NCBI GenBank assembly: GCA_944325165.1
Contig: CALUZF010000003.1
Coordinates: forward strand, 1-43,887
Source: Candidatus Gastranaerophilales bacterium
Lineage (GTDB): Bacteria; Cyanobacteriota; Vampirovibrionia; Gastranaerophilales; Gastranaerophilaceae
Length of the DNA: 43,887 bases
Direction of reading: 5' to 3'
The position numbers and the translations under genes were made by a program. Below are positions 12,238 to 37,365 of this stretch, piece by piece. How positions within the stretch are numbered: position 1 is the first letter of the stretch; the number at the start of each line of letters is the position of its first letter. The notes under the pieces are model-generated. The model did no database searches. It was not told the origin of the DNA and saw nothing but the letters and a program-made list of their open reading frames with translations.

Positions 12238-13746
12238 ATGAATATTTCAGCTATCAACAATTTATCAAGCATTAATACATCATTAAAACTAAAAAATTTA
12301 CAAAAAACATCAAATTCATTAACTCAAAGCTCATATTCAATTGCAAAAAATACTCTACAAGAAGCAATTGGAAGAAGTATGGTGCTTCCTTTTAAAGGCA
12401 ATGGACAAATTACTCAAGACGGCTTTTTGTATACACAAGAAAATATGCTAGGCTCCTTAAATGATAGAATTACATACAACAAGAAAACAGGCGAATTTAT
12501 CTTTGAAAAAACGCTTCCAAATGGAATTGTAAAAGAAAGTGTAAAATTTAACCCACAAAATGGTACAACTATTTCATATAAACTAAATGATAATGATACC
12601 ACTACTCAAACAATAAAGACTCCAAAAGACACAAGAACTTTAATAAAAGATGAACAAGGACGTAGAATTTATTTTGAAATAGAAAATCCGAAAGGTCAAA
12701 GAAAAACAGTTGAAACAGACTACGATAGAAATCGTGAAGTTACACAATTAAGTGCGCCAAACATTCCTACAAAAACAACCGTAAAAGATTTATCAACAGG
12801 AAAATATGTAGTTAGTGGGCCTTTAGTAGAAGATAGAATAGAAGTAGAAGATGGCATATTTGAAACAAAAAATATAGTAACAGGTGCGCTATATAAACGT
12901 GAAATATACACAAATAAAGGAAGAACAATTCAAATCACTGATTTTTCTAGAGAAACAGGAATAAAAACAAAAGAAACAATAATTGATAAAGGCGAGACAG
13001 ATATTACATATTTTGATAAAAATGGCGTAAGAAACAAAAATGTCTATACCAACAAAAAAGGTGTGAAAACATATACAATCTATGCTGAAGATGGAATTTA
13101 TGAAACATCAAAAGTAGAAAAAACATTTGATAAAAAAGGTAAACTTCTAAGAAAAGTTACATATACTCCAAATACAGATTTAATAGAAAATATTGTTGAA
13201 GTAAATAACGCAAATAAATCTACTACAACATATTATTTTGAATCATACCCAAATGTTTGCAAATATAGCGAAACTAAAGTAAATGATGTTTTAGTTAAAT
13301 CAATTAATTACTATGAAGATGGCAAAAAACCTAAAAAAATTACAAAATACGACACAAATGGCTCATATATTGAAGAATTGTATGATAAAAAAGGACATTT
13401 TCCTAAAGCTAAAACACTATATTATGATACAAATCATGAATTATATAAACGTGAAGAATTTGACACTCGAACAGGTAAAATATTTGAATCATGGGAAAAA
13501 CACCCAAATATTGACAATTTGAGCATACTAAAAATGTTTGATTATAATGGAATTCTTGAAAAGAAAGATATCATACAAAACGAAAGAATATTGTCCGAAA
13601 GAACATATTATTATGACGATGGTATTACGCCAAGAAAAATAATTAAATATAATCCAGATAGATCCTACAAAGAGCTTGAATATTCAAGAGCATTTAAATT
13701 AACGTCTGAAAATGAATACACAGCTTATGGCGAATTAAAATCATAG
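12238..13746 (+). CDS. Large Tyr/Asp/Gly repeat protein with tagged N-terminus, unknown function
   Basis: A 502-aa protein without signal peptide or membrane segment. The N-terminus MNISAINNLSSINTS and an LPFKGNG at about residue 51 resemble the N-terminal tag seen on several other proteins here (see findings). From about residue 60 to the end it is built of short beta-hairpin units such as TYFDKNGVRNKNVYTNKKGV and YYEDGKKPKKITKYDTNGSY, in the style of RHS/YD or YwqK-like (MORN-related) repeats. Such repeats form beta sheets used for binding. No catalytic domain is visible. AAGGA precedes the ATG by 6 nt. It has its own promoter with a palindrome. Confidence 0.75.
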   Translation: MNISAINNLSSINTSLKLKNLQKTSNSLTQSSYSIAKNTLQEAIGRSMVLPFKGNGQITQDGFLYTQENMLGSLNDRITYNKKTGEFIFEKTLPNGIVKESVKFNPQNGTTISYKLNDNDTTTQTIKTPKDTRTLIKDEQGRRIYFEIENPKGQRKTVETDYDRNREVTQLSAPNIPTKTTVKDLSTGKYVVSGPLVEDRIEVEDGIFETKNIVTGALYKREIYTNKGRTIQITDFSRETGIKTKETIIDKGETDITYFDKNGVRNKNVYTNKKGVKTYTIYAEDGIYETSKVEKTFDKKGKLLRKVTYTPNTDLIENIVEVNNANKSTTTYYFESYPNVCKYSETKVNDVLVKSINYYEDGKKPKKITKYDTNGSYIEELYDKKGHFPKAKTLYYDTNHELYKREEFDTRTGKIFESWEKHPNIDNLSILKMFDYNGILEKKDIIQNERILSERTYYYDDGITPRKIIKYNPDRSYKELEYSRAFKLTSENEYTAYGELKS

Positions 13747-13817
13747 TCCATTCTTTACATTTGTTAATATTATAATAAAGTTTTTCCAAAAAATACCGTT
13801 ATATATCAGGTAGGTAT

Positions 13818-15065
13818 ATGAAGGTAACTATGTCAACAAATGTAGGTAATTATCAACTTCCATGGCTTAGACAAACATCTGATACATCAGGTATTAATTC
13901 TTGGCGTAAATTAAGTCCAAATTGCATAGATGAACTATATGCAACCAACCTAAAAGAAGAAGACAGAGGAAATTTTGAAGAAACTTTCCCTGAAGGAGCT
14001 AGATTTAAAATAGTAGACGAGCATCTATATACACCGAACTCAGAAAGCTCACAACCATACGATTTTTATAATTCTTTAATTGATAATAAACAATATTTAA
14101 CAAATACGCTTGATTTAACAAGCGAAGAATATGACGCCCTATCTTGTATAGCGCTTGCTCTTGCATCTCAAGAGACAGGAATGGGCTATGAAGAAGGCTA
14201 TAACGAAGAAAACACCTTTAAAGGCGGTATATTAAGAAAATTAGGAATATTTTTTACATCTGACAATTCAGCTTCATCTGGATTAACTCAAATTAAAATC
14301 TACGATAGAGCTCAAGAGTTTGTCCAAATTTATAGAAGCATAATGCAACAAAGAGGCGTGAAATTTGACGGGAAAGTATCTGATAACCTTGATGATCCGG
14401 AAAAATCCGCTATAGCTACAATGGTTCTTTTAAAAACAATTTCGCTTAAATACAATGACTATAAAAAAACAATGAACGAGAAAAACGAAGAACTCAAACA
14501 AGAATTTGCAAATCAAGGAATAGACCCACAAGAAGCTGAAAATAAAGGTTTTGACTATTTATCTCAAATTTATCAAGCATATCAAAATTCAACTGACGAA
14601 CAAAAAGTTGAAATAAGAGTTGCTTTTAAACAACTTCTTAAATCAACTGATGGCTCTACAAGAGAAAACCCATCACCCGATGGCAAAGAATACACAGAAG
14701 AAATACAATTTGAAAGATTGCAAGAAGCTCTTGGCGACAACGTAGTGCTTGAAGATGACGCGCTAAGCTACATGAAATTAGCCTTAAGCAATGAAATATG
14801 CCAAATGGATATGATTGAATATTGTGCGTACGCTTGGAATAGCGGTACAGGAGATACAGGCATGCAGCCGGATAGAATAATGGCTGAAAAAATTGGAATC
14901 ATATTATCTGACCCAGAAGATTTTGATTATGATCAATACAGCGCAAATGTAGTCTCACTAACTGAAAGATATGCTCAACAAGCAGGAAATGCCAAAGATA
15001 GAGATGAAGCATATTCGATGATGCAAGAAGCTCTTAAAGATTTAGATAAAAAAGGCACTCATTAA
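13818..15065 (+). CDS. Lysozyme-fold (SLT-like) protein, putative lytic transglycosylase
   Basis: A 415-aa protein whose pattern matches the goose-lysozyme/soluble lytic transglycosylase fold: a helix with a candidate catalytic Glu119 (ALASQETGMG), then SSGLTQIK (153-160) equivalent to the family's S-x-x-G-L-x-Q-I, and AYAWNSG (337-343) equivalent to the AYNAG motif. Between them lies a long helical insertion (about 210-310). This is a motif match, not an alignment, so activity on peptidoglycan is inferred. No signal peptide is visible, which is odd for such an enzyme. A second ATG at residue 5, preceded by AAGG, is an alternative start. An extended -10 (TATAAT, 13771-13776) lies upstream. 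Confidence 0.6.
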   Translation: MKVTMSTNVGNYQLPWLRQTSDTSGINSWRKLSPNCIDELYATNLKEEDRGNFEETFPEGARFKIVDEHLYTPNSESSQPYDFYNSLIDNKQYLTNTLDLTSEEYDALSCIALALASQETGMGYEEGYNEENTFKGGILRKLGIFFTSDNSASSGLTQIKIYDRAQEFVQIYRSIMQQRGVKFDGKVSDNLDDPEKSAIATMVLLKTISLKYNDYKKTMNEKNEELKQEFANQGIDPQEAENKGFDYLSQIYQAYQNSTDEQKVEIRVAFKQLLKSTDGSTRENPSPDGKEYTEEIQFERLQEALGDNVVLEDDALSYMKLALSNEICQMDMIEYCAYAWNSGTGDTGMQPDRIMAEKIGIILSDPEDFDYDQYSANVVSLTERYAQQAGNAKDRDEAYSMMQEALKDLDKKGTH

Positions 15066-15075
15066 AAGTGCCTTT
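15051..15075. terminator. Hairpin between convergent genes
   Basis: A 9-bp perfect stem AAAGGCACT / AGTGCCTTT with a 7-nt loop includes the stop codon of the lysozyme-fold gene and lies 3 bp from the end of the 36-aa gene on the other strand. T tracts are short on both sides, so it is a moderate bidirectional terminator. Confidence 0.6.
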
Positions 15076-15078
15076 AAT

Positions 15079-15189
15079 TTATTTAATTACAAATGATAAC
15101 AGCCACATCACTAAAATAATCGTTCCCGAATAAAGTAATGCTTTTTGCATATCATCAGAATAATCATCTTTATCCTTTTTTTTATCCAT
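15079..15189 (-). CDS. 36-aa single-pass membrane protein
   Basis: A very short gene downstream of the ArsB/NhaD permease, separated from its stop by 12 bp. A good ribosome site (AAAAAGGACAATAT before ATG) supports it. The product begins with a strongly charged stretch of Lys and Asp (MDKKKDKDDYSDD) and continues into one hydrophobic helix (ALLYSGTIILVMWLLSFVI, residues 17-35), ending in Lys. This is the typical form of a small membrane accessory protein. Its place as third gene after an OadG-like subunit and a permease suggests that it joins or tunes that transporter. No family is recognised. Confidence 0.65.
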   Translation of the reverse strand: MDKKKDKDDYSDDMQKALLYSGTIILVMWLLSFVIK

Positions 15190-15201
15190 ATATTGTCCTT
15201 T

Positions 15202-16527
15202 TTATCTCAAAAATTTTAAGTAAATATATAGGCTACTAAGAACAAGTGAAATAAACACAACCGCAACACCATATTTCATAAATCCTAAAAATGAAATAGG
15301 ATGTCCGTGTTTTGCTGAATTTTCACTAACAATAACATTAGCTGCAGCACCTATTATAGTTAAGTTTCCACCAAGACATGCCCCTAGTGATAAACACCAC
15401 CAAATAGGATAAGCATATTGAGAACCTAAAACTGCTTGCATTTGAGCAATCATAGGCGCCATTGTAGCAGTATATGGAATATTATCAATTACACCTGATA
15501 TAATGCCTGAGCCCCATAAAATAATCATAGAAGCAGCACTTTGAGAACCATGGGTAACATTAATTATCCATTCTGCCATAAGTCTTATACCACCTGTTGC
15601 TTCAAGACCGCCAATTATAATAAATAAGCCAATAAAGAAGAAAATAGTGTTCCATTCAACTTCTTCCAAAATTTTTGAAGGTTTTTCAAAAAACAACAGT
15701 ATTGAAGCACCAAGCATAGCCACAATACTTGTTTCTATATGAATAACATCATGTGATATAAAACCTAAAATAACAAAAGCTAAAACAGTGCAAGAGCGCA
15801 CCATAGATTTAAAATCAGTAATAACTCCCGTATTATCAATGTTGGCAGCTTGTGCCATTTTATCTTCTGTAGTTTTTAATCGTTTTCTAAAGCAAAATGC
15901 AAGCATGCTTACAACGCAAATCATAATAATAGTTACAATTAATGTAAGCTCTTTTATGAAATCCATAAAAACAAAACCTGCAGCAGAACCTATAATAATA
16001 TTAGGAGGATCGCCAATTAAAGTAGCTGTTCCACCTATATTTGAACAGAAAACTTCAGTAATTAAAAAGGGTATAGGATTTATATCCAATTTTTTTGCTA
16101 TAGAAAAAGTTATAGGCATAATTAAGATAACTGTTGTAACATTATCCAAAAAAGCACTAACAACAGCCGTAAAGACGCCTAAAACTGCCAAAATCTTAAT
16201 CGGATGACCTTTTGTCATCTTTAAAAAATTATTGGCTACATAATTAAAAACACCACTTTTAGCAGTAATTGAAACAATAATCATCATTGAAACAAGTAAA
16301 AATATTACATTAAAATCTATGTAATTAATAAAATACAAAGGATTTATAGCACCATCTACAACCTTTGTTTGGCTAATTAAACCTAAAATTATTGTTAAAA
16401 CACCACCAAAAAGTGCAATGGTTACTTTTGGAATTTTTTCCAAAGCAATAAAAATATAAGCAAGTATCAAAATGGTTGCAGATATAATAACTCCATTTTG
16501 AGATACTATATTATGTAAAGCTTCCAT
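15202..16527 (-). CDS. ArsB/NhaD-type ion transporter (SLC13-like permease)
   Basis: A 441-aa integral membrane protein with about 11-12 hydrophobic helices. The signature IGGTATLIGDPPNIIIGSAAG near the middle, repeated in weaker form near the C-terminus (GACLGGNLTIIGAAANVIV), marks the two inverted halves of the ion-transporter superfamily that includes ArsB arsenite permeases, NhaD Na+/H+ antiporters and divalent-anion symporters. The substrate cannot be set from sequence; lack of arsR or arsC nearby and the neighbouring OadG-like subunit make a sodium-linked role more likely than arsenic export. AGGAGG precedes the ATG. Its ATG overlaps the stop of the upstream gene by 1 nt (TAATG), indicating translational coupling. 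Confidence 0.85.
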   Translation of the reverse strand: MEALHNIVSQNGVIISATILILAYIFIALEKIPKVTIALFGGVLTIILGLISQTKVVDGAINPLYFINYIDFNVIFLLVSMMIIVSITAKSGVFNYVANNFLKMTKGHPIKILAVLGVFTAVVSAFLDNVTTVILIMPITFSIAKKLDINPIPFLITEVFCSNIGGTATLIGDPPNIIIGSAAGFVFMDFIKELTLIVTIIMICVVSMLAFCFRKRLKTTEDKMAQAANIDNTGVITDFKSMVRSCTVLAFVILGFISHDVIHIETSIVAMLGASILLFFEKPSKILEEVEWNTIFFFIGLFIIIGGLEATGGIRLMAEWIINVTHGSQSAASMIILWGSGIISGVIDNIPYTATMAPMIAQMQAVLGSQYAYPIWWCLSLGACLGGNLTIIGAAANVIVSENSAKHGHPISFLGFMKYGVAVVFISLVLSSLYIYLKFLR

Positions 16528-16787
16528 TATTTTCCTCCTAATTTTGCGCTATATGCCAATGCAACAGCAAGAGCGATTTCATCATTATTAAAAGCGGGTT
16601 TTTTCTTTGTTTTTGTTTTTTCTTCTTTAACTTCTTCTGGAAAATATTTGTTTAAAACTTTTAGAATTAAACCGCTTGTAATATTCATTACAAAAATCAT
16701 CAATGTTAAAAAAGCTAGCACAACTGCCATACCAATAAATGTAACAGTAAGTGCTGTACCCAAATTTTGGGCAATCAAATCTGTCAT
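16527..16787 (-). CDS. OadG-like (sodium-pump decarboxylase gamma subunit family) small membrane protein
   Basis: An 86-aa protein with one N-terminal membrane helix (ALTVTFIGMAVVLAFLTLMI) followed by a Lys/Glu-rich linker and a short Ala-rich helix. The G-M-A-V-V pattern in the membrane segment is the hallmark of the OadG family, which stabilises oxaloacetate and related decarboxylase sodium pumps. No alpha or beta subunit lies here. Instead it is translationally coupled to an ArsB/NhaD permease, suggesting that this family member was recruited by a transporter. AGGAGAAGAATT precedes the start. Confidence 0.72.
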   Translation of the reverse strand: MTDLIAQNLGTALTVTFIGMAVVLAFLTLMIFVMNITSGLILKVLNKYFPEEVKEEKTKTKKKPAFNNDEIALAVALAYSAKLGGK

Positions 16788-16831
16788 AATTCTTCTCCTA
16801 TTCTATATAAATAAACAACAAAAACACACTA

Positions 16832-17197
16832 TTAAGGTGCATTAGGCTGAATTTGGTGCAATAAAAAGAGAAGTGCTAGTTCGTTTTTATCTTCCAAATA
16901 AGCCATGTTATATAAATATGAAGATACATTATTAAATTCATTTATTTTTAAAAGAGCAACATTATCATTTGTACTATTTTCGGAGTGATTTCTTCTATTA
17001 TTAATCGTTGCATTTGAATTTTGTACAACATCAATAGATAATTCACTATTAGGATTTAATAAAATTTGTTTTTGCGATTGAAATGAAGAAATGTAAGAAC
17101 AATCGATATTAACTACTTCATTGCAATTTGCACAATTAAACAATAAAGCAGTTAATACCAATGCAAAAATTAAAAATATCTTTTTAATTAAATCCAT
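16832..17197 (-). CDS. Small exported protein of unknown function
   Basis: A 121-aa protein with a cleavable-type signal sequence: basic MDLIKK, a hydrophobic core IFLIFALVLTALLF, then NCANC. The Cys context (LFNC) does not fit a standard lipobox, so secretion to the periplasm seems more likely than lipidation. The mature part is rich in Asn, Ser and Leu, with a C-terminal helix of Leu/Ala residues (ELALLFLLHQIQ). No domain is recognised. It lies 44 bp upstream of the oadG-like gene on the same strand and divergent from lptC. Confidence 0.65.
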   Translation of the reverse strand: MDLIKKIFLIFALVLTALLFNCANCNEVVNIDCSYISSFQSQKQILLNPNSELSIDVVQNSNATINNRRNHSENSTNDNVALLKINEFNNVSSYLYNMAYLEDKNELALLFLLHQIQPNAP

Positions 17198-17257
17198 ACA
17201 ATATATATTATTATAAAAATAAAATTTTAAAATATTAATTTGTGATATGATTTTTAT

Positions 17258-17848
17258 ATGAAAAGAAAAAAAATAGCCAAAATAGTATCTGTTATAATTG
17301 CCCTGCTTTTAGCATGGGGGTTAATTTGGAGCTATAGTGTTACAAAAATAGTCAAAAAAAATAGCAAAAATGCTAACTTAAAAAATCAGCATGCCGTTGT
17401 AAAAAATATTATAGTAACAGAAACCCAAGACGGCAAAAAATATTGGGAATTTTATGCAAAGTCAGGAGAATATAATTCTCAACACAACAGCATAAAATTA
17501 AACGATTTAATCGGAAATTTTTATGATAAAAATGAACAAGTTGTCGTAAGTTTTAAATCAAACCAAGGAACTTATGATGAAAAAACTAAAAAAGTAATCC
17601 TAAACGGAGAAAATCTCTTTGTTGGAAAAGACGGTTCTCAGCTATATGCCGATGAATTAATCTGGCAAGGACAAGACAAAGATATTCTGGCAAATGGCAA
17701 TGTTCAATTTATCCAAGATAACAAAATAATAACAAAATCACAAAAAGCAATTTTTAACTCCAGCCTTACTGATTTTAGGATAATAGGTAAAACAAAAACA
17801 CAGCTTTTTGCTGATGAAAATAAGAAGAAAAAATATACACAGCTATAA
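17258..17848 (+). CDS. lptC: LPS export ABC transporter periplasmic protein LptC
   Basis: The LptC subunit sits on the inner-membrane LptBFG complex and passes lipopolysaccharide to LptA. The 196-aa protein has one N-terminal membrane anchor (about 8-28) and a periplasmic beta-jellyroll: strands run from VVKNIIVTETQDG through WEFYAKSGEYN to SQLYADELIWQGQDKDILANGNVQFIQ, the family pattern. No good ribosome site precedes the ATG; TATGAT at 17246-17251 lies so close that the message may be nearly leaderless. It opens a plus-strand run of seven envelope and metabolic genes. Confidence 0.85.
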   Translation: MKRKKIAKIVSVIIALLLAWGLIWSYSVTKIVKKNSKNANLKNQHAVVKNIIVTETQDGKKYWEFYAKSGEYNSQHNSIKLNDLIGNFYDKNEQVVVSFKSNQGTYDEKTKKVILNGENLFVGKDGSQLYADELIWQGQDKDILANGNVQFIQDNKIITKSQKAIFNSSLTDFRIIGKTKTQLFADENKKKKYTQL

Positions 17849-17870
17849 TTTTTGTGTTAAATTAATAGTA

Positions 17871-18863
17871 ATGAAGAAGAGAGAATTTAAATTTTTAATA
17901 ATAATATTATCCTTGCTTTTATTAGGAAGTGCTTTTGCAATTACAATTGAATCCAAAAAGCAACAAGTGCAATTGGATAAAAACAAAGGATATTTTAGCG
18001 GAGATGTCAAAGTTCAAGTTGGCGATGTCATTGTGCAATCTCCTAGAGCAGACTTAGATTTAGAGCCCGAAACCAAAAAGCCTTCATTGGCAACATTTTT
18101 TGATAAGCCCTATGCACACCAAACCAAAGACAATAAAAAGCATGAAGTAAAGGCTGATATAATCAAAGTTTCTTTAATTAAAAAAATTATCACAGCACAA
18201 GGTAATGCGCAAACAAATGTATTGCAAGATAAAAAACCAATAGTAATCATAACCGCAAACGAACAGGAATACAATACAAATAATAACCTTATGAAAGCAA
18301 TAGGCTCAGTTGTTATAAATTATGAAGATATGGTAGCAACGTCAGACACTGCTTATGCTCTTATGGATAAACATGGCGATGTTCAAAACATAAAACTATC
18401 ATCAAGAGCCACAATTAAACAAGATAAAAGTATAATTAAAGGCGATAATATACAATATTCAAAATTGCGCCAAGACATTATTGTATCTGGAAATACAATG
18501 TCCGATGTAACTTTTGAAAATGGCGATAGAGTTATAATCAACGCCAGAAGTCAGCAATATGACAGAATAGGAAACACAATAATGGCAACAGGTTCTGTTA
18601 ATGTAAAATATGCAGATTATGTTGCAGTAGGTCCGAAAGCAATTATGTATATAAATTCAAAAACAAATAAACCAGATAAGATTGTTTTTATTGGTCGCTC
18701 TAAAATAACAGAGAAGAAAATAAATTCTGTTGAAGCTGATAAAATAGTGATAACTATGCAGCCAAAAACATTTGAAGCCTCTGGACAAGTTAAAACAATT
18801 ATCGAACAAGGTTCAAACCAAAATAAATCTAATGACAGCAATAAAATGGAGTTTAGCTTATAA
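17871..18863 (+). CDS. lptA: LptA/OstA-domain periplasmic protein
   Basis: A 330-aa exported protein with a signal peptide (MKKREFKFLIIILSLLLLGS then AFA). The mature part consists of repeated OstA beta units: GYFSGDVKVQVGDVIVQSPR, ITAQGNAQTNV, MKAIGSVVINYEDMVATSD, IVSGNTMSDVTFENGD, and MATGSVNVKYADYVAVG. LptA forms the periplasmic bridge for LPS. This is about twice the length of E. coli LptA, so it carries two OstA modules and may span more of the periplasm alone. The reading frame is open further upstream, but only the ATG at 17871 gives a signal peptide and avoids overlap with lptC. Its stop is followed at once by the ATG of lpxI. Confidence 0.83.
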   Translation: MKKREFKFLIIILSLLLLGSAFAITIESKKQQVQLDKNKGYFSGDVKVQVGDVIVQSPRADLDLEPETKKPSLATFFDKPYAHQTKDNKKHEVKADIIKVSLIKKIITAQGNAQTNVLQDKKPIVIITANEQEYNTNNNLMKAIGSVVINYEDMVATSDTAYALMDKHGDVQNIKLSSRATIKQDKSIIKGDNIQYSKLRQDIIVSGNTMSDVTFENGDRVIINARSQQYDRIGNTIMATGSVNVKYADYVAVGPKAIMYINSKTNKPDKIVFIGRSKITEKKINSVEADKIVITMQPKTFEASGQVKTIIEQGSNQNKSNDSNKMEFSL

Positions 18864-19685: not shown

Positions 19686-19688
19686 AAT

Positions 19689-20804: not shown

Positions 20805-20807
20805 ATT

Positions 20808-21407: not shown

Positions 21408-21410
21408 ATT

Positions 21411-21881
21411 ATGAAATCAGATTTCTTAAATATTGTTTTATATGAGCCAGAAATACCTCAAAATACCGGCAACATCGCAAGACTTTGTGCCTGTCTTGGT
21501 GCAAAATTATATCTTGTCGGCAGATTGGGTTTTATTTTATCCGATAAATACCTAAAGCGTGCAGGATTAGATTATTGGGACAAATTAGAAATTGAGCATG
21601 TTGAAAGCTTAGATAAATTAATTGAAGAAAATAAAACCTCTAATTTTTACTATTTCACAACAAAAACAGATAAAATATATACAAAAATAAACTACAAAAA
21701 AGGCGATTTTTTGATATTCGGCCCTGAAACAAGAGGAATACCGGAAGATATACTGAATAAAAATTCTTCAATGTGTGCTACAATACCAATGAGAAAAGAA
21801 ACAAGAAGTTTAAATTTATCAAATTCTGTTGCAATAGCAGCCTATGAAGCTTTTAGACAATTTGATTGCCATCTGGACTAA
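21411..21881 (+). CDS. trmL: tRNA (cytidine(34)-2'-O)-methyltransferase
   Basis: A small SPOUT methyltransferase that modifies the wobble position of tRNA-Leu. The 156-aa length, the opening VLYEPEIPQNTGNIARLCA, the knot motifs IFGPETRGIPEDIL and IPMRKETRSLNLSNSVAIAA, and the final AYEAFRQ are all typical. It sits in the envelope operon with no obvious functional link, a common arrangement for trmL. Confidence 0.94.
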   Translation: MKSDFLNIVLYEPEIPQNTGNIARLCACLGAKLYLVGRLGFILSDKYLKRAGLDYWDKLEIEHVESLDKLIEENKTSNFYYFTTKTDKIYTKINYKKGDFLIFGPETRGIPEDILNKNSSMCATIPMRKETRSLNLSNSVAIAAYEAFRQFDCHLD

Positions 21882-24472: not shown

Positions 24473-25957
24473 TTATTCATCAATTTCATCAGATTCTTCA
24501 GTATCAGTCTTATCTTCACTTAGTTCTTGTTGTGACTGTTCAAATTCGGCAATCCTTATTTGATTTTGAATTAAAATCATATTAGTTTGAGAATTTTGAA
24601 TATCATTAGCAGCAACATTTATGACTTCAGAGCGCTTTTGATCATAATTTTGTTTGCAAGTTACATAATTATCATAGGCTGCTTGAGCCTCTTCATTTTG
24701 AGCAATTAATGCTTCTTCCATCTCGGTTAAAGTCGCAGCTTCAGTTTCATACAATCGATTTTGATCTTCAAGAGAAGTATTTTTCTCTTCAATTTGAGTT
24801 GTAAGTGCTCTCACTTCGTTTTGACACTGTATTTTTTCATTTTCAAGTGCTTCTTTTTGCTCGTTTAGCGCAGTTATTTGAGCGTCTATTGCTGCTATCT
24901 GAGCAGAATTATCGACGACATTGCCATTTTCATCTTCTTGTCCATCAGAAGCTTCAAGTGCTGATTTTTGAGAATTTAAGGAAGTAACTGATGAGTCAAT
25001 AGATGTGATTTGTTGTTCAATAGTTGATATATTTAGTTCTAATTCTTGTTTGTGCAAATCATCTTGCATAAGCTCTAATTGTAAATTAGTTGTGCTAATT
25101 TCCATCTCATCAAGCAAAGCTCTTTTATCCGAAATTTCTTGTTTAGCTTCAGTATCGTCAGACAAATCTAAAAAACTACTATAAGCAGCATCTGTCTGCT
25201 CTTTTAAGCCGGATACTTCAGAAGATGTACCATTTAGCGCAGCAGTAAATGCTTCTTGATTTTGTTGATTATTTGCAGTTTCTTGCTCTAATTCTGTGTT
25301 TAGCTCATCTAAGCTCATACCTTCATATTTAGATGAGTTTTCAGCCACTGATTGAGATGAAGCTGATGAAGCAGAAGAAGCACTGTTATATGAGCCTCCC
25401 CCACTGCTATATCCACCGCCTGAGCCACCTGAGGATTGAACAGCTTGGGTTTCTTGAGCAGTATTACTTTTAAAATCAGCCAAATCAACCATTTCAAATT
25501 TATTATTATTAATATCTTTTATGCCACCAAAAATATCACTAATTGAAACATTCTCGTCATCGCCATCATTTTTACCAACAGTTGCAAAAAAACCTTGTAA
25601 TTCTTCGCCGCTTATACTACCGTCGCCATCAATATCAACTGCTTCAATCATTTTATCTGAAGAAGTTAAATCGCCAATAAAATCAAAGAAAAATTCCTCA
25701 TCTTCATTTTTAGCAAAATCATTTTTGGCTTGCTCCAAATAATCATCAATTTCACTTGCATCAAGCGAAAGCAAGTTGTCCATTTTCATAGTTTGAGAAT
25801 CAAGGTCAAATTCTTCATTCTGCTTTAAAAAATCTTTGAATTCACTAGCATATTCAAAAATATTTATATCATCCTCAATATCTGATTTATCGCCTTCCTT
25901 TTCTTTTAACTTAATCAGATATTCTCTAAATGCAATTTTTAAATCAGAGTAATTCAT
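24473..25957 (-). CDS. EF-hand protein with Gly/Ser/Tyr linker and long coiled coil
   Basis: A soluble, acidic 494-aa protein. The N-terminal 100 residues are helical. A canonical EF-hand calcium loop, DIDGDGSISGEE, lies at about 108-119; a second, weaker one may lie around 130-150. A low-complexity linker of Gly, Ser and Tyr (about 176-204) joins it to a coiled coil of roughly 270 residues rich in Gln, Glu and Leu. The C-terminus is highly acidic (DKTDTEESDEIDE). No signal peptide is visible. Start choice: AAGGA at 25966-25970 is 8 nt before the ATG at 25957 but only 2 nt before another ATG at 25963. It looks like a calcium-responsive structural or adaptor protein; its function is unknown. 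Confidence 0.75.
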   Translation of the reverse strand: MNYSDLKIAFREYLIKLKEKEGDKSDIEDDINIFEYASEFKDFLKQNEEFDLDSQTMKMDNLLSLDASEIDDYLEQAKNDFAKNEDEEFFFDFIGDLTSSDKMIEAVDIDGDGSISGEELQGFFATVGKNDGDDENVSISDIFGGIKDINNNKFEMVDLADFKSNTAQETQAVQSSGGSGGGYSSGGGSYNSASSASSASSQSVAENSSKYEGMSLDELNTELEQETANNQQNQEAFTAALNGTSSEVSGLKEQTDAAYSSFLDLSDDTEAKQEISDKRALLDEMEISTTNLQLELMQDDLHKQELELNISTIEQQITSIDSSVTSLNSQKSALEASDGQEDENGNVVDNSAQIAAIDAQITALNEQKEALENEKIQCQNEVRALTTQIEEKNTSLEDQNRLYETEAATLTEMEEALIAQNEEAQAAYDNYVTCKQNYDQKRSEVINVAANDIQNSQTNMILIQNQIRIAEFEQSQQELSEDKTDTEESDEIDE

Positions 25958-26040
25958 CGACATATTCCTTTTTCTCCACAAAATAAATATCGGCAAAAAA
26001 CCAGAAAAATTAAGAGAAAAATAACATCTGTTACAAAAAT

Positions 26041-26883: not shown

Positions 26884-27204
26884 ATGAATATCTCGCCAAT
26901 TAGAAATAATGTTTATTTTAAAAGAAATTATAATAGTTCGTTTGGCAATAACTATAATAGAAGCGATAATGAGCTTGAAAATATTGCAAAAATAATAAGT
27001 CTTAAACAAAAAGTTAATGAAATTAAAGATTATAGACAAACTAGACTAATCGAATTAACCAAACAACAAATCAGAATAAGAGGGCAAATGCAATCTGAAA
27101 TAGATAGAATTGAAAGAGAAAAAGAAGAATTAATAAGTAAAACCTCAAGACAAATATTCAATTTAAACAGTCAAATAACATTTCATCTTGGCGAAAATAA
27201 ATAG
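26884..27204 (+). CDS. Small coiled-coil protein with MNISPI N-terminal tag
   Basis: A 106-aa protein. The first 25 residues, MNISPIRNNVYFKRNYNSSF and on, are Asn-rich with FK and SFG elements that resemble the other tagged proteins here; the rest (about 33-100) is a highly charged coiled coil (Arg, Glu, Lys, Gln with Ile/Leu at heptad positions). No signal peptide or membrane segment. AAAGGA precedes the ATG. The next gene, 9 bp downstream, has the same design, so the two form a small operon ending at a terminator. Function unknown. Confidence 0.7.
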   Translation: MNISPIRNNVYFKRNYNSSFGNNYNRSDNELENIAKIISLKQKVNEIKDYRQTRLIELTKQQIRIRGQMQSEIDRIEREKEELISKTSRQIFNLNSQITFHLGENK

Positions 27205-27213: not shown

Positions 27214-27528
27214 ATGAATATTCAGCCTATTAGCTCAACAATTTCAAAAAATATTCACTTTGGTGCCACACAAAATATAACCGAAACCCAAAGACATGAG
27301 GCAAATAAAGAAATTGACGATATAAGAAAACAAATTAGCGAACTAGATAAGTCATTAACAAGCAATATATCAAAAATCGATTCTGCTGAAAAAGAAATTA
27401 AAGAAGATGGAGAAAGGCAAATCTCTGTACTTGAAAAAGAAAAAGACGATTTAAGAAAACAAACAAACAAAGATAAAACAACTCTCCAAAAAAGAATTGA
27501 TGACTTGCAAAATCAATATGATGTTTAA
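27214..27528 (+). CDS. Small coiled-coil protein with MNIQPI N-terminal tag
   Basis: A 104-aa protein. The start MNIQPISSTISKNIHFGATQ shows the same M-x-I-x-P-I opening and a later H-F-G-A as in its neighbour and other proteins in the window. Residues 25-104 form a continuous charged coiled coil (EIDDIRKQISELDKSLTSNI and on). AGGAAAATTTT precedes the ATG. The identical architecture of the two genes suggests either duplication or a heteromeric pair, though the coiled coils are not obviously homologous. Function unknown. Confidence 0.72.
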   Translation: MNIQPISSTISKNIHFGATQNITETQRHEANKEIDDIRKQISELDKSLTSNISKIDSAEKEIKEDGERQISVLEKEKDDLRKQTNKDKTTLQKRIDDLQNQYDV

Positions 27529-28021: not shown

Positions 28022-28050
28022 AATAATAATATATAAACACCTAGTTATTG

Positions 28051-29109: not shown

Positions 29110-29190
29110 AATAAGCCTCCTTATCTATTCAACCTCTAACAACAAGGATAACATACCATATTTTAGGCTCAATTACAATATTTGACTTTA

Positions 29191-30531: not shown

Positions 30532-30585
30532 AGAAATTTTATTTGCATATTCTAATTATTTATTAAATTAATTATAATATTTTTT

Positions 30586-31593: not shown

Positions 31594-31690
31594 TTCGTTA
31601 TTTTAAGACCTGATGAAAATTAAAAAATATTTCTAAAATCTCTTACATAATTCTCTACAAATTAATTCACCGTTTATGTAAAGAAACACA

Positions 31691-31729
31691 TGGTTTGATT
31701 ATTACGTACGGTTGGTTTGATTATTTTAG
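31691..31729 (-). repeat. Intergenic repeat copy with internal 13-bp direct repeat
   Basis: TGGTTTGATTATT occurs twice (31691-31703 and 31713-31725), with the palindrome CGTACG between. The right part, read on the minus strand (31729 to 31704), matches the repeats at 40692-40717 and 40858-40883: AAAATAATCAAA, a few variable bases, then CCGTAC. It lies in the gene-poor gap 31594-32129 after the AmmeMemoRadiSam gene. Confidence 0.7.
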
Positions 31730-31921
31730 TAAAAAAGATATAAAAATCTTATTTAATTTTTATCATTTTGTAAATTTCTTATTATACCATCACTATGAAT
31801 TTTATTCCATAAAATCCGCCTAAATTTGGAAGGTCTTACAAATTATGCGCGTTTTTCGCTACATTATATAATTCCATACAATAAAATACAGGAGTGTTAA
31901 TTAAATGAAAGGATAGAATAT

Positions 31922-32130
31922 TTGCTCAAAAGTATTTATTTAGGAATGAAATTAGAGAAAAATAAAAAACCTCTAACTCGTGAAAAAATTCTTTCTTTAA
32001 TAAAAGGAGAATTATCGAGTGCAAAAATTTTATATTGATTAAAATTAATAAAGAAAATTTCAAAACTGCATTTACTCGACAATCATTTGATACTATGAAG
32101 ACATCTTTAAATTTTGCAAAAAGAATAACT
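31922..32130 (+). pseudogene. Remnants of one or two small unknown genes
   Basis: A 38-codon frame (31922-32038) reads LLKSIYLGMKLEKNKKPLTR and on to SSAKILY and a TGA. That TGA overlaps a TTG (TTGA) that opens a second frame, IKINKENFKTAFTRQSFDTM and on, which runs past 32130 antisense into the end of the kinase-like gene. The 4-bp overlap resembles coupled genes, and both stretches have protein-like composition, but neither is a recognised family and the second lacks its own end. I read them as remnants of a lost gene pair. The remaining sequence from 31594 holds nothing else I can name. Confidence 0.35.
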
Positions 32131-33941
32131 TATTGTTTAACCGAAACAAGAAAATCATGCATGCTAAAGGGGTTAATTGGTGTAGTATTTGCAGAATTTA
32201 TTGGTTTTGTAGCTGTTTGGATTTGCTGTGTATTTTGTCCTATTTTATTTGCTTGCGATTGCTGTATATTTCCTAATGCGTTATTATTTTCTATATTTTG
32301 ATTTTGTTTATTTTTTCTATGTTTAAAATAAGCAAATACAGAACCAATAACAGCACCAATACCAATAATTGCAGCTATAATTTTTCCTCCGTTTTTAGAA
32401 CCTTGTTTTACTATCATAGCAGGTTCTGTTTTTAGAGTATCTGTTACAGTCTCCATGGTGTCTTGGGTTGCTTGCGCTGTTTTTACAAATAATTTTTCTA
32501 CAAGATTGAATTCAGGCTCAAGTTGAGCTCTTTTTGCACCTTCAGGTATTCTATAAATACCAGCTTTTAATTTTTCAAAAAATGACAGCGAATCATTATA
32601 ATATTGCTTTAGTTCACCTGTATCTTTATCTTTAAAACCTTGTATCATAGAAACTAGAGTTTCAAACTGAGTTTGAACCGCACTTTTTTGCTCCTCTGCC
32701 ACCCATCTTATTTGCATTTTTGCCAATTCTGTTTTTAAAACATTTTCTTTAATTGTTTCTTGCGATAATAAATCGGTCAGCATTTTTTCATAGCTTGTTG
32801 CATTTTTAATTCTTTGAGAAATTGTTTCTCTATCCAGTTGGCAAGCATTTGATACTTCATCAATATTTAATCCTTCAAAGAAACTTACCATAATTTTATG
32901 ATGCTCAGACCCTTTAGCTTTAAGATAATTTATCAACACTTGGCTTGCAATATCACTATCTTTAGCTTTTGCAGTATCAAATAAATGGTAAAAGAGGCTT
33001 CTGTATTCAAAATTAGCTACATTTGATAGAGAACTAAAATATGGATTAGCGTTTCTTGAAATACAAGTTGTATCAATATCAGAAAAGCCTAAATACGGCT
33101 TTGTATTTTTAAGCAATTCTTCAAGGTTTAATCTTCTAATATCACCCTCTTTTAATGCACCAAAATCAGGGTAGAATGAATCATAATCCATTGAAACGCC
33201 TAATGATTTCAGCATTTCAAGAGTTATTTTATCCTGTACAGATACACTAAATCCTCCAAAGTCAATTAATTCAGCTTTATCTCCATTAAAAAATATATTT
33301 TCAAGTTGAGCATCGTATTGCATAAAACCGCTTTTATCGAGCTGAGTTAATTTTTTTAAAACATCTCGGGTTTGATTTGGATTTAATATTCTCCCCTCTT
33401 GTGCATTTAAAACTTTACCTTTTGCAAGGTTTGTTATTATGTAGTGTTTGCCATCTTTTTCAATTATATCAATCAATTCTTGAGCATCTTCAACACCTGA
33501 CTCTTTTACTTTTTTTAGTGCAAAAGCTTCTTTCTCGTACGTAGAATCATTGCCGTAGTTCATAGCATCAGGTCTAAAAAACCTTACACCATAGCTTTCG
33601 CCATCAGTTGAAGGAATCTTGTAGCAAATTGAGTTCGTTCCAACTCCCATTATTTTAAAGTCTGATGAATCTGCTTTTTTTAAAAAGTTTTTCATCTCAT
33701 CTTTGCCCATTTGTCGATTGGTTGATTGCAAATGTTTATCTGTAGTTTGTTTTAAATCTTCATAAATTGATGCTAAAAAAGTAATAAAACTTTCAAAATC
33801 AGGTACAGTGTCTTTATTGCCTTTAAAACTTACCGTATCAACATTATCTTGAAAGATAGGTTTTGTTATACCAAAGCTTCTAATATTCTTTGAAATATTA
33901 TAAGAACTACCTATGTTAAGTTTTATAGTATTAATTCTCAC
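32130..33941 (-). CDS. Divergent protein-kinase-fold membrane protein
   Basis: A 603-aa protein with a kinase-like domain at about 95-300: a Gly-rich loop GVGTNSICYKI (99-109), YGVR with Arg120 where kinases have the ATP-binding Lys, a possible helix-C Glu136 or Glu138, a catalytic-loop equivalent MQYDAQLENIFF (Asp210 and Asn215 kept; the His, Arg and Lys of HRDxK replaced), and a metal-binding DFG at 228-230. Helical sequence follows, then one membrane segment (about 518-539) and a Gln/Asn-rich tail of 64 residues. The N-terminus (MRINTIKLNI, then IRSFG and VSFKG at 37-41) carries the recurrent tag. The start codon is GTG. Activity is uncertain because of the Lys to Arg change. It is divergent from the HAD/radical-SAM operon. 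Confidence 0.7.
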   Translation of the reverse strand: MRINTIKLNIGSSYNISKNIRSFGITKPIFQDNVDTVSFKGNKDTVPDFESFITFLASIYEDLKQTTDKHLQSTNRQMGKDEMKNFLKKADSSDFKIMGVGTNSICYKIPSTDGESYGVRFFRPDAMNYGNDSTYEKEAFALKKVKESGVEDAQELIDIIEKDGKHYIITNLAKGKVLNAQEGRILNPNQTRDVLKKLTQLDKSGFMQYDAQLENIFFNGDKAELIDFGGFSVSVQDKITLEMLKSLGVSMDYDSFYPDFGALKEGDIRRLNLEELLKNTKPYLGFSDIDTTCISRNANPYFSSLSNVANFEYRSLFYHLFDTAKAKDSDIASQVLINYLKAKGSEHHKIMVSFFEGLNIDEVSNACQLDRETISQRIKNATSYEKMLTDLLSQETIKENVLKTELAKMQIRWVAEEQKSAVQTQFETLVSMIQGFKDKDTGELKQYYNDSLSFFEKLKAGIYRIPEGAKRAQLEPEFNLVEKLFVKTAQATQDTMETVTDTLKTEPAMIVKQGSKNGGKIIAAIIGIGAVIGSVFAYFKHRKNKQNQNIENNNALGNIQQSQANKIGQNTQQIQTATKPINSANTTPINPFSMHDFLVSVKQ

Positions 33942-34140
33942 TTATTATTTTTTCCTCTTAGTATAACAACACTACGTCTGCATATATATAAAACTACAAA
34001 AAAATATTTTTTAATAGAAGAATGTAAATAATTATTAATTTTATATATAAATACTATTTAAAAATAACTTTAAAAAGGGTTTAATGAAGTAATATTAAAC
34101 AATTAGTTTAACAAATTAATATAGAAATAATTGGTGAAAC

Positions 34141-35487
34141 TTGCGCATTACTAACATTAAACAACACTATAGGCAAATCAATTTTAGTGCAGGCAACTTT
34201 TCTCTTTTTTCTGATTTTGACGGTACTTACATGCCTTTTGACCATAAAGATATTTGTACTTATGATGGTTACAAAAATAATAATGAAATCAAAAGACTGT
34301 TTAACTGCTGTTATGTACCATTTCAAAATTTTATAAATAAATTTGGTGACAATTTTAATTTCGTAATTACAACGGGAAGAAATCGACCTGAATTTAACTA
34401 CTTTCTAAGTAAATTAAAAGCGCAAGGAGCAGATTTACCAAAACCTGATACTCTAATTACTTGTGACGGCAAAGATATTTTCTATAGACAGGGCGGTGTT
34501 TATCCAAAAGAGACACTGGATCATAAGAAAAGGGATGAATTATCTAGGAAACTGAATTGGAATCCTGCTCAAATAGTACCTAGAGTGCAAGAGCTTATAT
34601 CAAAAACACCAACCAAAGACGGGAAACACATTAATATAATCACAGTCCCAATTAACAAAAGTTCTATTGATTATGGCAATATTTCCCTTCAAAATATATT
34701 AGATAATAGTGCTAATATCAGAAATAATTTTGCTTCATTCAATGAAGGTTACGATTTTAATCCCTATATCGTTTTTTCAGATAATGCAGATGTTGAAACA
34801 ATAAAAAAACGACTTGAAGAATTTTTAAGACATAGCCAAATAAACGCTAAAGTCAGCTATTGTGAACAAGATTGGGATGTTCAATATGGTGTACCTTACC
34901 AATCATTATCAGTAAAACCATATGCAACAGAAGGTTTTTGGAAAGATAAAAAGATCAACAAGCTGATCGATACCCACAAAAAAGTTGAGGAAATTTATAA
35001 AAATAAAACAAACGATCTTATTATTGTTGCAGGCGATGCAAGAAACGATGAAGATATGCTAAATATATTTAATTATGTTGATATACTTGGCTTTGAAATA
35101 CCGACCAGAGATAAATACAAAGAATTTTTAGAAGATTCAAAAAATAGAGAACTTTTAAGGCAGTTGCCTATTATTAGTGTTGTGGTTGGCTCAAAACAAG
35201 ACTTGGAACAAATAAGACGAAATCAACAGTTATTAGATAAATACGGAATAAGCAAAACGGTGTTTATTGATTATAACAATGGCGACATATTGCTTGACGG
35301 CGTAAAACAAGCAATAAATATATATTCAAAACAAAATGAACAATTTAAAAATGCACTTCCCGCAGAGCTTTTAAATGAATTAAAGCCGCTAAATATACCT
35401 TTATCAAATAGATATAATAAGCTTATAGAGGAGATAAAAGTTTTATTTAGAAAATTAGATAAAATCAAGGAGTCCTTATATGCTTGA
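34141..35487 (+). CDS. HAD-superfamily phosphatase (Cof/sucrose-phosphatase type) with tagged N-terminus
   Basis: A 448-aa protein. HAD motif I is DFDGT (25-29, catalytic Asp25 and Asp27), motif II TTGR (77-80), and motif IV GDARND (298-303). The cap between motifs places it among the HAD-IIB hydrolases that act on sugar phosphates. A C-terminal extension of about 130 residues is not part of the known domain. The N-terminus MRITNIKQHYRQINFSAG precedes motif I directly and matches the tag family. The start is TTG: it is the first possible codon after an in-frame stop at 34135 and it alone preserves the tag. The ribosome site is weak (GGTG). Its last 8 bp overlap the radical SAM gene, so the two are coupled. 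Confidence 0.8.
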   Translation: MRITNIKQHYRQINFSAGNFSLFSDFDGTYMPFDHKDICTYDGYKNNNEIKRLFNCCYVPFQNFINKFGDNFNFVITTGRNRPEFNYFLSKLKAQGADLPKPDTLITCDGKDIFYRQGGVYPKETLDHKKRDELSRKLNWNPAQIVPRVQELISKTPTKDGKHINIITVPINKSSIDYGNISLQNILDNSANIRNNFASFNEGYDFNPYIVFSDNADVETIKKRLEEFLRHSQINAKVSYCEQDWDVQYGVPYQSLSVKPYATEGFWKDKKINKLIDTHKKVEEIYKNKTNDLIIVAGDARNDEDMLNIFNYVDILGFEIPTRDKYKEFLEDSKNRELLRQLPIISVVVGSKQDLEQIRRNQQLLDKYGISKTVFIDYNNGDILLDGVKQAINIYSKQNEQFKNALPAELLNELKPLNIPLSNRYNKLIEEIKVLFRKLDKIKESLYA

Positions 35488-36751
35488 ATTACCTTTTCAG
35501 ATGGAATTTGTTGTTAATTTAACTCATAGATGCAATATGACTTGCAATATGTGTACTCAATACGGTGCAACATTTAAAAATAATACATTAAATGAAATGA
35601 CCTTTGAGGAGTGGGATAACTTCTTTAAAAGTTTAAAAATAGTTAGACCGAGGCCACTTGTTACTTTAATGGGCGGTGAACCATTGTTGCATAAAGATTT
35701 TGACAAGATTTTAATGTCAGCAGTTGAAAACAAACTTAAAGTACATATTGTAACAAACGGATTTCTTTTAAAAGAACATCTTGATACAATTGCAAAATCG
35801 AAAGCAAATATATCCATAAGCATTGATGGGCTTGGTGAAACTCATGATAGGATTAGAAATACAAAAGGAAGCTTTGAAAAATCTGTAGAATGTTTAAAAC
35901 TAATACAAAAAATCAACAAACCAAAAAGGCAAATAAGGACTTGTATAAATTTTGTAATGTTGCCCGAAAATATTGATGAAATATTGGAATTTGCACAAAC
36001 TATGTGGCAATATGAACCTGCTTTCATTGGTTTTCAACATTTGCAGTTTTCGTCTGATAAATTAGACAAAGAAAACAATAAAGAGTGGATTAAATGTTTT
36101 AATCAAAAATATACAACAAAACTAAAGCCGAAAGTTGAATATAAGTTCGATGAAGATTATATTCAGAAGTTATATTCAATAATAGAGCAGTTGAGAAAAA
36201 AATATGCTCCTACCAAGGTTTATGATTTTCCTCATTTAACATTTGAAGAAATGAAAAAATATTATCTAGAAGAAGATTTATTCTTAATCAGAAAAAATAG
36301 GGTTTGCACAACTCCTTGGATGGCGCCATCTATTACACCCGATGGCAAGGTTTCAAATTGTATCTGTAACGAAATTGGCGATTTAAGAAAAGAGGATTTT
36401 TGGACAATTTTTGATAACCATAAGGCAAATCTAATAAGACAAAGACTTGTTGAACATGGTAAATTCCCCGTATGTTCAAGGTGCTGTTGCTTTTATAAAA
36501 GTAATTTTTTGCTTGCACCAAATAAAGTAATTAAATTAAATGATGGGCAAAAATTACTTTTGCCACAGGAATTAAACTTTATAACAGCAGCAAAAGATGG
36601 TGTATTTGTTTATAATTCTAGTTTTGTCTTTGAAAATAGTGAACAAATGGATTACACGCCTGTTTTGCCCCATACTATTCACAATAAAAAACAGCAAAAA
36701 AGAATAGAAAAAGATAATGTTATAGTTGGCACATATGATCAAATGTTGTAA
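35480..36751 (+). CDS. Radical SAM enzyme with SPASM-like C-terminal domain
   Basis: A 423-aa enzyme. The [4Fe-4S] site C-x3-C-x2-C is Cys18-Cys22-Cys25 (CNMTCNMC). GGEP (65-68) and ISIDGLGETHDRIR complete the radical SAM barrel. The C-terminal part has Cys276 (CTTPW), Cys294 and Cys296 (CIC) around PDGKVSNC, and Cys332, 335, 336 and 337 (CSRCCC), the arrangement of SPASM/twitch auxiliary clusters found in peptide-modifying enzymes and some carbohydrate or cofactor enzymes. AAGGAG precedes the ATG. Its gene overlaps the HAD gene and lies 29 bp before a small Gly-rich protein gene, which could encode its substrate. Substrate unknown. Confidence 0.88.
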   Translation: MLELPFQMEFVVNLTHRCNMTCNMCTQYGATFKNNTLNEMTFEEWDNFFKSLKIVRPRPLVTLMGGEPLLHKDFDKILMSAVENKLKVHIVTNGFLLKEHLDTIAKSKANISISIDGLGETHDRIRNTKGSFEKSVECLKLIQKINKPKRQIRTCINFVMLPENIDEILEFAQTMWQYEPAFIGFQHLQFSSDKLDKENNKEWIKCFNQKYTTKLKPKVEYKFDEDYIQKLYSIIEQLRKKYAPTKVYDFPHLTFEEMKKYYLEEDLFLIRKNRVCTTPWMAPSITPDGKVSNCICNEIGDLRKEDFWTIFDNHKANLIRQRLVEHGKFPVCSRCCCFYKSNFLLAPNKVIKLNDGQKLLLPQELNFITAAKDGVFVYNSSFVFENSEQMDYTPVLPHTIHNKKQQKRIEKDNVIVGTYDQML

Positions 36752-36780
36752 AATACAGTTAGATAAAAGGAGAAACGACA

Positions 36781-37365
36781 ATGGCAATCAATACTCACGA
36801 CAATAGTTTATTGTTTTCAAAAAAACATTCAAAACAAAAACTTTCAAGTTCAAAAAGTACAAAAGCTAAAGCAAGTGATTTACAAAGTTTTACAGGTACA
36901 AGTATTTATGAAACAGGAAAGAAAAATAAAATTGATTCTGTTAAGTTAAAGAATTCATTGCTATCAAATATTTCTTTTGCAGGGACAACAAACGCAATTG
37001 CATTTGGCTCAGGTGGTGGTTATGGTTCGTATGGTGGGGGTTATAGCTCCACTCCATCATCTTCTCAATCTGCGCAAGGAAGTCAACAAACTACAGGAGT
37101 GCAAAAATCTCAGGCAACACAAAGAGCAAGTGTGGTAAATGATGATTTTAATATCGAAGGATTATACAATAGCGATAAGGTGAAAAAATTGACAACTGAA
37201 AAAATGAACTTAATTAAACAATATAAAGACTTGCAGGCGACAATAAGAGAATTAGATGCCAAAAAGAAAGAAGCTGTTGAAATGCTTGCTGAAATTAGAG
37301 GCAAAGTTCATCAGATAAACATGGATATTTTAACTGCTGAAGAAGAAGAACTTTTTAGGCAATAA
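36781..37365 (+). CDS. Gly/Ser/Tyr-rich protein with C-terminal coiled coil, possible radical-SAM partner
   Basis: A 194-aa protein between the radical SAM gene and the GH13-like gene. The first 60 residues are Ser/Lys-rich. Then come ISFAG (64-68) and IAFGSGGGYGSYGGGY (73-88), a Ser/Gln-rich linker to about 115, and a charged coiled coil from about 135 to 190. The FAG and FG elements are like those of the tagged proteins, and the Gly-Tyr-Ser stretch resembles the linker of the EF-hand protein at 24.5-26.0 kb. No signal peptide, leader cleavage site or Cys is present. AAGGAGAAACGACA precedes ATG. It is either a structural protein or a substrate of the upstream enzyme. Confidence 0.7.
   Translation: MAINTHDNSLLFSKKHSKQKLSSSKSTKAKASDLQSFTGTSIYETGKKNKIDSVKLKNSLLSNISFAGTTNAIAFGSGGGYGSYGGGYSSTPSSSQSAQGSQQTTGVQKSQATQRASVVNDDFNIEGLYNSDKVKKLTTEKMNLIKQYKDLQATIRELDAKKKEAVEMLAEIRGKVHQINMDILTAEEEELFRQ

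What the first reader, a model, noticed from the sequence alone, without database searches (positions are those of the whole stretch)
12238..37365. A shared N-terminal tag on unrelated proteins
Five proteins begin M-[RN]-I-x-x-I followed within 10-40 residues by F-x-G/A-type elements: 12238 (MNISAI, later LPFKG), 26884 (MNISPI, SSFG), 27214 (MNIQPI, IHFGA), 33941 minus (MRINTI, RSFG and VSFKG) and 34141 (MRITNI, INFSAG). A sixth, 36781, opens MAINT and has ISFAG. Their bodies have nothing in common: repeat protein, coiled coils, kinase-like, HAD, Gly-rich protein. A common leader on unrelated cargo suggests a sorting or secretion signal, or a binding site for one shared partner. I know of no described signal with this form. 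This is the strongest candidate here for an undescribed system.
Basis: partly seen in the sequence, partly recalled or inferred. Interest (0 to 1): 0.78.

Follow-up and report, generated by a model that had tools for sequence, protein, structure and literature searches.

The report
Shared N-terminal tag, gut Gastranaerophilales
Many unrelated proteins of this gut bacterium start with the same short two-part tag, which looks like an address label for an uncharacterised, flagellum-like protein export machine carried by its order; export itself has not been shown.

Summary
The tag is real, N-terminal and not confined to one gene family. It reads roughly M-[K/N/R]-I-[S/N/T]-x-[I/V]-[N/S], an Asn/Ser/Thr-rich linker, then [I/V/L]-[S/N]-F-x-[G/N]. 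The genome belongs to Candidatus Gastranaerophilales (gut "Melainabacteria"). In held-out genomes of the order the two halves occur in one protein more often than expected (18 vs 6.9, p 1.5e-5); two outgroups gave no significant excess in small samples. Tagged proteins include a kinase-like protein, a HAD phosphatase-like protein, a GT5 starch-synthase paralogue, GH77-, FtsH- and Hel308-like proteins. Canonical glycogen synthase is untagged (0 of 30); its diverged paralogue is tagged in 14 of 24. A candidate partner is a second, flagellum-type T3SS, present also in seven genomes without flagellin. Best reading: an export signal with the same plan as the two-part signal of early flagellar subunits (confidence 0.48). 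Against it: tagged genes do not cluster at the T3SS loci, the second half does not fit FxxxΦ, the system's own FliE lack the first half, a class relative with two FlhA showed no tags in 126 genes, and no export is shown. Intracellular recruitment is a strong rival.

The parts
12238..12399 (+). Tag of the 502-aa protein: MNISAINN start, Asn/Ser-rich linker, LPFKG (Phe 52)
   Evidence: AGGA upstream
12238..13746 (+). Cargo gene, 502 aa, no Pfam family above cut-off
26884..26949 (+). Tag of the 106-aa coiled-coil-like protein: MNISPIRN ... SSFGN (Phe 20)
27214..27267 (+). Tag of the 104-aa coiled-coil-like protein: MNIQPISS ... IHFGA (Phe 16)
33819..33941 (-). Tag of the kinase-like protein: MRINTIKL (GTG start) ... 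RSFG (Phe 23), VSFKG (Phe 39)
   Evidence: residues 1-47 predicted disordered
32130..33941 (-). Cargo gene, 603 aa, kinase-like with invariant D210, N215, D227; found in 13 of 58 relatives
34141..34194 (+). Tag of the HAD phosphatase-like protein: MRITNIKQ (TTG start, no Shine-Dalgarno seen) ... INFSAG (Phe 15)
34141..35487 (+). Cargo gene, 448 aa, S6PP/HAD-like (24.4 bits, cut-off 20.3)
36781..36984 (+). Partial tag of the 194-aa Gly-rich protein: MAINTH (no second Ile), ISFAG (Phe 66)

Best explanation
The tag is an uncleaved, disordered, two-part N-terminal export signal used in the order Gastranaerophilales to send proteins out through a second, filament-less, flagellum-type type III secretion system. 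Proposed steps: (1) the short hydrophobic start (Ile3, Ile6) engages the FliPQR-FlhAB gate; (2) the Asn/Ser-rich linker stays unfolded; (3) the [IV]-[SN]-F-x-[GN] element docks on a cytosolic export part (FlhB-C, the FlhA ring, or, where present, a stand-alone FlhA cytosolic-domain protein); (4) the cargo, often diverged copies of enzymes, is exported, perhaps towards host, protist or neighbouring cells. Shown here: the tag, the joint occurrence of its halves, its spread over unrelated families, the genes of the second T3SS. Inferred: every step of recognition, export and destination.
For: Joint occurrence of both halves in held-out order proteins, p 1.5e-5, not significant in outgroups. Tag stretch (residues 8-35 of 32 tagged vs 1,327 untagged) is Asn 15 vs 7%, Asn+Ser+Thr 33 vs 18%, acidic 8 vs 11%, Ile/Leu/Val/Phe 20 vs 31%: not a Sec signal's hydrophobic core. 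Kinase model: residues 1-47 below pLDDT 50. Cargo patchy: kinase in 13 of 58 relatives. Matched pair: canonical GlgA untagged 0 of 30, diverged GT5 tagged 14 of 24 with that family left out of training. Second FliP of 57 of 57 FliP-bearing relatives; second FlhA in most; FliMN-O-P-Q-R and FliE-FliF-x-FliH-FlhA loci, T3SS-type ATPase, rod proteins. Seven relatives have the second FliP and FlhA and no flagellin and no flagellar-type FliP. Plan of the signal like that of early flagellar subunits (PMC8983047, passages). Precedent for exported glycogen enzymes: PMC4829429, passages.
Against: Tagged genes are not linked to second-T3SS loci: score >=8 in 1 of 266 genes within 5 kb (that one is the FliMN gene itself) vs 51 of 1,138 elsewhere. 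FxxxΦ not met: hydrophobic at +4 in 30% vs 38% background. The 13 FliE of the order's second system lack the first half. G058, class relative with two full-length FlhA, has no tag at >=8 in 126 genes. Several tagged GT5 proteins have a membrane-like segment just after the tag (by eye). In kinase homologues the first half is loose (3 of 11 at >=4). Several cargo look metabolic. No export data.
Confidence: 0.48

Rival explanations
1. Intracellular recruitment tag: the motif binds one cytosolic or inner-membrane hub and gathers unrelated enzymes into a complex, pole or compartment; nothing is exported.
For: Cargo such as GT5, GH77, FtsH-like, Hel308-like and methyltransferase proteins could work inside the cell. 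Membrane-like segments follow the tag in several GT5 copies (by eye). No linkage to T3SS loci.
Against: No hub protein was found or sought. Canonical GlgA is untagged while the diverged copy is tagged. The plan resembles a known export signal.
Confidence: 0.27
2. The tag is used by another exporter (the flagellum itself, a contractile injection particle, type IV or type II machinery) rather than by the second T3SS.
For: Most relatives also carry a flagellum (flagellin in 50 of 58). N-terminal packing signals exist in contractile particles (recalled).
Against: Tagged or tag-like genes occur in G033 and G028, which lack flagellin and flagellar-type FliP. Sheath protein PF04984 in only 8 of 58 relatives and not in the own genome. 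Type II and IV machinery was not tested.
Confidence: 0.13
3. No functional unit: AT-rich coding bias, start-codon context and low-complexity N-termini make look-alike starts, picked out by eye.
For: First regex tests were weak. Outgroups also exceed shuffles slightly (2 of 496 vs 0.25). First half loose in kinase homologues.
Against: The halves are associated in held-out proteins after near-duplicates were removed. In the kinase alignment F39 and F52 are the only nearly invariant positions in the first 100 residues. Paralogue contrast in GT5.
Confidence: 0.12

Closest known systems
Two-part export signal of early flagellar rod/hook subunits (PMC8983047; passages)
   Same: Hydrophobic residues at the extreme N-terminus, an unfolded spacer, and a downstream docking motif.
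   Different: The docking motif there (recalled as FxxxΦ) is not enriched here; here the cargo are soluble enzymes and signalling-like proteins.
Non-flagellar T3SS and its Myxococcales form (PMC3459982; passages)
   Same: Export core without a filament in seven genomes.
   Different: That paper's NF-T3SS discriminators are a secretin and absence of FlgB, FlgC, FliE; here FliE and rod-type proteins are present and a secretin was not sought.
Exported chlamydial glycogen enzymes, including GlgA and MalQ (PMC4829429; passages)
   Same: GT5 and glucanotransferase-type enzymes as T3S substrates.
   Different: No shared sequence tag is described in the passages seen; the canonical GlgA here is untagged.
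Incomplete flagella of gut Melainabacteria (PMC3787301; passages)
   Same: [quoted passage not shown] the paper's gene list holds two flhA of ACD20.
   Different: Read there as genome reduction; here flagellated relatives carry a flagellar set and this second set side by side.

Membership tests
Early flagellar two-part export signal | Small hydrophobic residues at the extreme N-terminus | tested here: met
   Position 3 Ile in 47 and position 6 Ile or Val in 44 of 57 tagged proteins; the set was chosen by the score, so this is partly by construction
Early flagellar two-part export signal | Downstream gate motif FxxxΦ (form recalled) | tested here: not met
   Hydrophobic at +4 of the Phe in 30% vs background 38%
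Early flagellar two-part export signal | Export through a T3SS gate | not testable with these tools
   needs an export assay
Non-flagellar T3SS | Core export genes (FliPQR, FlhA, FlhB, ATPase, FliF, FliH, FliMN kin) | tested here: met
   FlhB seen in one locus (L146) only
Non-flagellar T3SS | No FliE, FlgB or FlgC | tested here: not met
   FliE in 12 of 14 loci (L154 and L200 are one contig), rod-type Pfam matches at L144 and L204
Non-flagellar T3SS | Secretin | not tested
   no secretin search was run
Flagellum (second system) | Flagellin filament | tested here: not met
   no PF00669 match in G009, G028, G029, G030, G033, G034, G047, which keep the second FliP and FlhA
Sec signal peptide | Hydrophobic core in the first 35 residues | tested here: not met
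   Ile/Leu/Val/Phe 20% in residues 8-35 of 32 tagged vs 31% of untagged; no signal-peptide predictor was run
Contractile injection particle cargo | Sheath protein in tagged genomes | tested here: not met
   PF04984 in 8 of 58 relatives, not in the own genome, G001, G008 or G033; G045 has one

The most novel reading that the evidence does not exclude
Gastranaerophilales, gut commensals sister to Cyanobacteria, export some dozens of proteins per genome (about 2% of roughly 1,680 sampled genes score >=12, training genes included) through a dedicated filament-less flagellum-type T3SS. The cargo carry a readable two-part address, and in most members a stand-alone FlhA cytosolic-domain protein serves as an extra receptor for the F-x-G half.
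Probability: 0.15. Interest if true: 0.93.

Novelty: new variant of a known kind. Interest (0 to 1): 0.72.

Why it matters
T3SS signals are, to my knowledge, rarely readable as a motif; a readable one would let the exported set of a little-cultured gut order be listed from genomes alone. It would give a function to the 'incomplete flagella' of gut Melainabacteria, read so far as decay (PMC3787301, passages), and point to a delivery system in a commensal group where the paper listings searched show none.

Tried and rejected
DNA patterns over the own genome: one search found none; two searches found some real tags among many chance hits. Simple protein regexes were too weak to settle the matter. 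Linkage of tagged genes to second-T3SS loci: not found. FliE as the model of the tag: one Bacillus FliE (L239) scores 19.6, but it is the only outgroup FliE recovered, and the 13 distinct FliE of the order's second system lack the first half; dropped. FxxxΦ: not met. Contractile particle: not general. Anti-phage defence: PADLOC hits among ten proteins are a helicase, a methyltransferase and one weak coiled-coil match. The stand-alone FlhA-C as universal receptor: G029 (98% complete) and G030 (93%) show one FlhA match each, so it is not in every genome. Next to it lies a GH77 gene with a weak tag score in G033; a look-alike in G028 was not scanned.

Rows dropped: of the 15 match rows, L135 and L139 (fragments) and L138 (same gene as L134) were left out of the alignment; L128 was aligned from an internal start because extending it met stops, and left out of the N-terminal count. 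In one search near-duplicates were removed (1,228 to 1,050; 496 to 494; 1,386 to 1,040). The 24 diverged GT5 rows are related by descent and were found by likeness to a tagged one; their p-value overstates independence, and L331 may have a mis-called start. Gene starts come from my own simple caller, not a trained gene finder. Some own contigs were chosen because they held hits.

Full report
What is there. The bodies share no Pfam family above cut-off. The genome is a 1.76 Mb, 87% complete assembly of 195 contigs. A scan of named genomes with a same-genus relative's second FlhA returned Candidatus Gastranaerophilales and Galligastranaerophilus records among the closest, so I place the window in Gastranaerophilales (Vampirovibrionia, 'Melainabacteria').

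Beyond the window. In 20 further stretches of the same genome, tagged genes appear on a GH77-like protein, a GT5 starch-synthase-like protein, a methyltransferase, a Hel308/Ski2-like helicase, a protein with ankyrin-like repeats (below Pfam's cut-off) and unknowns. In relatives they also appear on an FtsH-like AAA-peptidase, a TPR protein and further unknowns.

Is it more than chance? A two-block score was trained on 14 own-genome N-termini (seven residues after Met; a seven-residue block around F further in). In held-out members of the order 16 of 1,100 genes reached 12 against 1.33 in within-protein shuffles: G033 2 of 430, G045 6 of 200, others 8 of 470. Four outgroup samples gave 2 of 496 against 0.25. 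Because start context lifts scores everywhere, I also tested whether the halves occur in one protein more often than their own frequencies predict: 18 vs 6.88 (p 1.5e-5) in 1,050 non-redundant held-out order proteins, 3 vs 1.18 (p 0.10) in 494 class-outgroup proteins, 2 vs 1.58 (p 0.49) in 1,040 proteins around FlhA loci of other bacteria, one Caenarcanales locus included. Earlier simple tests were weak.

Shape of the tag. In 57 non-redundant tagged proteins (chosen by the score, training proteins included) position 3 is Ile in 47, position 6 Ile in 34 and Val in 10, position 7 Asn or Ser in 37. The second block is mostly Φ-[S/N]-F-[G/K]-[G/N]; its F lies between residues 12 and 77, in 32 of 57 before residue 30. 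The stretch between is rich in Asn/Ser/Thr and poor in acidic and hydrophobic residues. In the kinase model residues 1-47 have pLDDT below 50.

Two families keep the tag while sequence drifts. Kinase-like: matches in 13 of 58 relatives. In an alignment of 12 homologues (19-85% identity to the window's) D210, N215 and D227, which look like the catalytic loop and DFG of kinases, are invariant; in the first 100 residues only F39 (of VSF39KG) and F52 are nearly invariant. With this family left out of training, the F block scores 7 or more in 10 of 11 readable homologues, but the first block scores 4 or more in only 3 of 11: the start is hydrophobic but looser than MxIxxI. The 50 best Foldseek matches shown are entries of protein kinases (E 5.9e-6 to 3.0e-5). 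GT5: most of 39 genomes have a canonical glycogen synthase, and many a longer diverged paralogue. None of 30 canonical copies fetched has a tag; 14 of 24 diverged copies reach 8 with that family left out of training. Likewise a canonical FtsH of G033 starts without a tag, while the FtsH-like protein of G045 has one.

A candidate partner. FliP occurs in 57 of 58 relatives; the exception is G057, of another order of the class. A shorter second FliP is listed for each of the 57, beside a longer flagellar one in most. FlhA occurs in the same 57, in three kinds: flagellar, a second full-length copy in most, and in most a protein of about 490 aa that matches only the cytosolic domain; G029 and G030 have a single match and lack the third kind (the table was cut). 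A profile of the third kind matches solved FlhA cytosolic domains (best 3mix, E 1.7e-40). The second system has FliMN-FliO-FliP-FliQ-FliR in one place and FliE-FliF-unknown-FliH-FlhA in another: of 14 loci examined (13 distinct) FliE is in 12, FliF and FliH in 13, an SLT transglycosylase in 5. FlhB lies beside it in one locus; a T3SS-type ATPase in three and rod-type proteins in two were confirmed by Pfam. Seven relatives have the second FliP and FlhA but no flagellin and no flagellar-type FliP; rod-family matches remain in all 57. In the class, FlhA is found in 94 of 146 genomes; f8 and f13 genomes listed have none.

How it may work. The simplest joint reading is that the tag is the export signal of this second system. 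[quoted passage not shown] The tag has the same plan with a different second motif. Chlamydial glycogen enzymes including MalQ carry T3S signals (PMC4829429, passages), so such cargo have a precedent.

What speaks against. Tagged genes do not cluster at the second-T3SS loci. The Phe motif is not FxxxΦ. The system's own FliE lack the first half. G058, with two full-length FlhA, had no gene at 8 or above in 126. Several tagged GT5 proteins have a membrane-like segment straight after the tag (by eye). Presence of tag and of T3SS follow the order, so their co-occurrence is confounded by descent. Export, receptor and destination are inferred. An internal recruitment tag fits much of the same evidence.

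Literature. Full-text searches of the open library gave no listing whose title or abstract start describes this system or tag. Passages were read of PMC3787301, PMC5877343, PMC4451040, PMC8983047, PMC3459982 and PMC4829429; PMC5877343 ran a secretion-system scan whose results were not in the passages seen. Supplements, subscription journals and preprints were not seen.

Verdict. A real, order-level N-terminal tag on unrelated cargo; most likely an export signal of a second, filament-less flagellum-type T3SS (0.48), with internal recruitment as the main rival (0.27).

Noticed in passing
L141:1043-2494 minus (own contig C74); homologues in L143, L145, L147, L149, L151, L153, L155: A stand-alone protein of about 490 aa whose C-terminal part is an FlhA cytosolic domain (best solved relative 3mix), in most but not all genomes of the order. 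In G045 it lies beside genes that look like FliJ, FliK, FlgD and FlgE (by eye).
   Followed up: partly
L066:3842-7543 (own contig C6); L142, L144, L146 and others: A second, flagellum-type T3SS in the order, kept in genomes without flagellin.
   Followed up: partly
window 35480-36751 plus: A radical SAM/SPASM protein sits between the tagged HAD-like gene and the Gly-rich 36781 gene; it might modify a peptide or protein.
   Followed up: no
window 24473-25996 minus and 36781-37365 plus: Both carry a GGGY/SSGGG-type Gly/Ser-rich stretch beside coiled-coil segments (by eye); 24473 also has an EF-hand-like match just below cut-off.
   Followed up: no
window 37368-39272 plus: A 634-aa protein directly after 36781 with no Pfam or NCBIfam family at the thresholds used.
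   Followed up: no
L239:118 plus (Bacillus sp.): A FliE, an early flagellar export substrate, begins MNISGINTD and has a TSF motif, scoring like a tag; single case.
   Followed up: partly
L072, L102, L104, L310-L324: A diverged second GT5 family in which a membrane-like segment follows the tag in several copies.
   Followed up: partly
G141: A 99% complete genome of the same family whose best FlhA match scores like the cytosolic-domain-only protein: a possible natural loss of the second FlhA.
   Followed up: no
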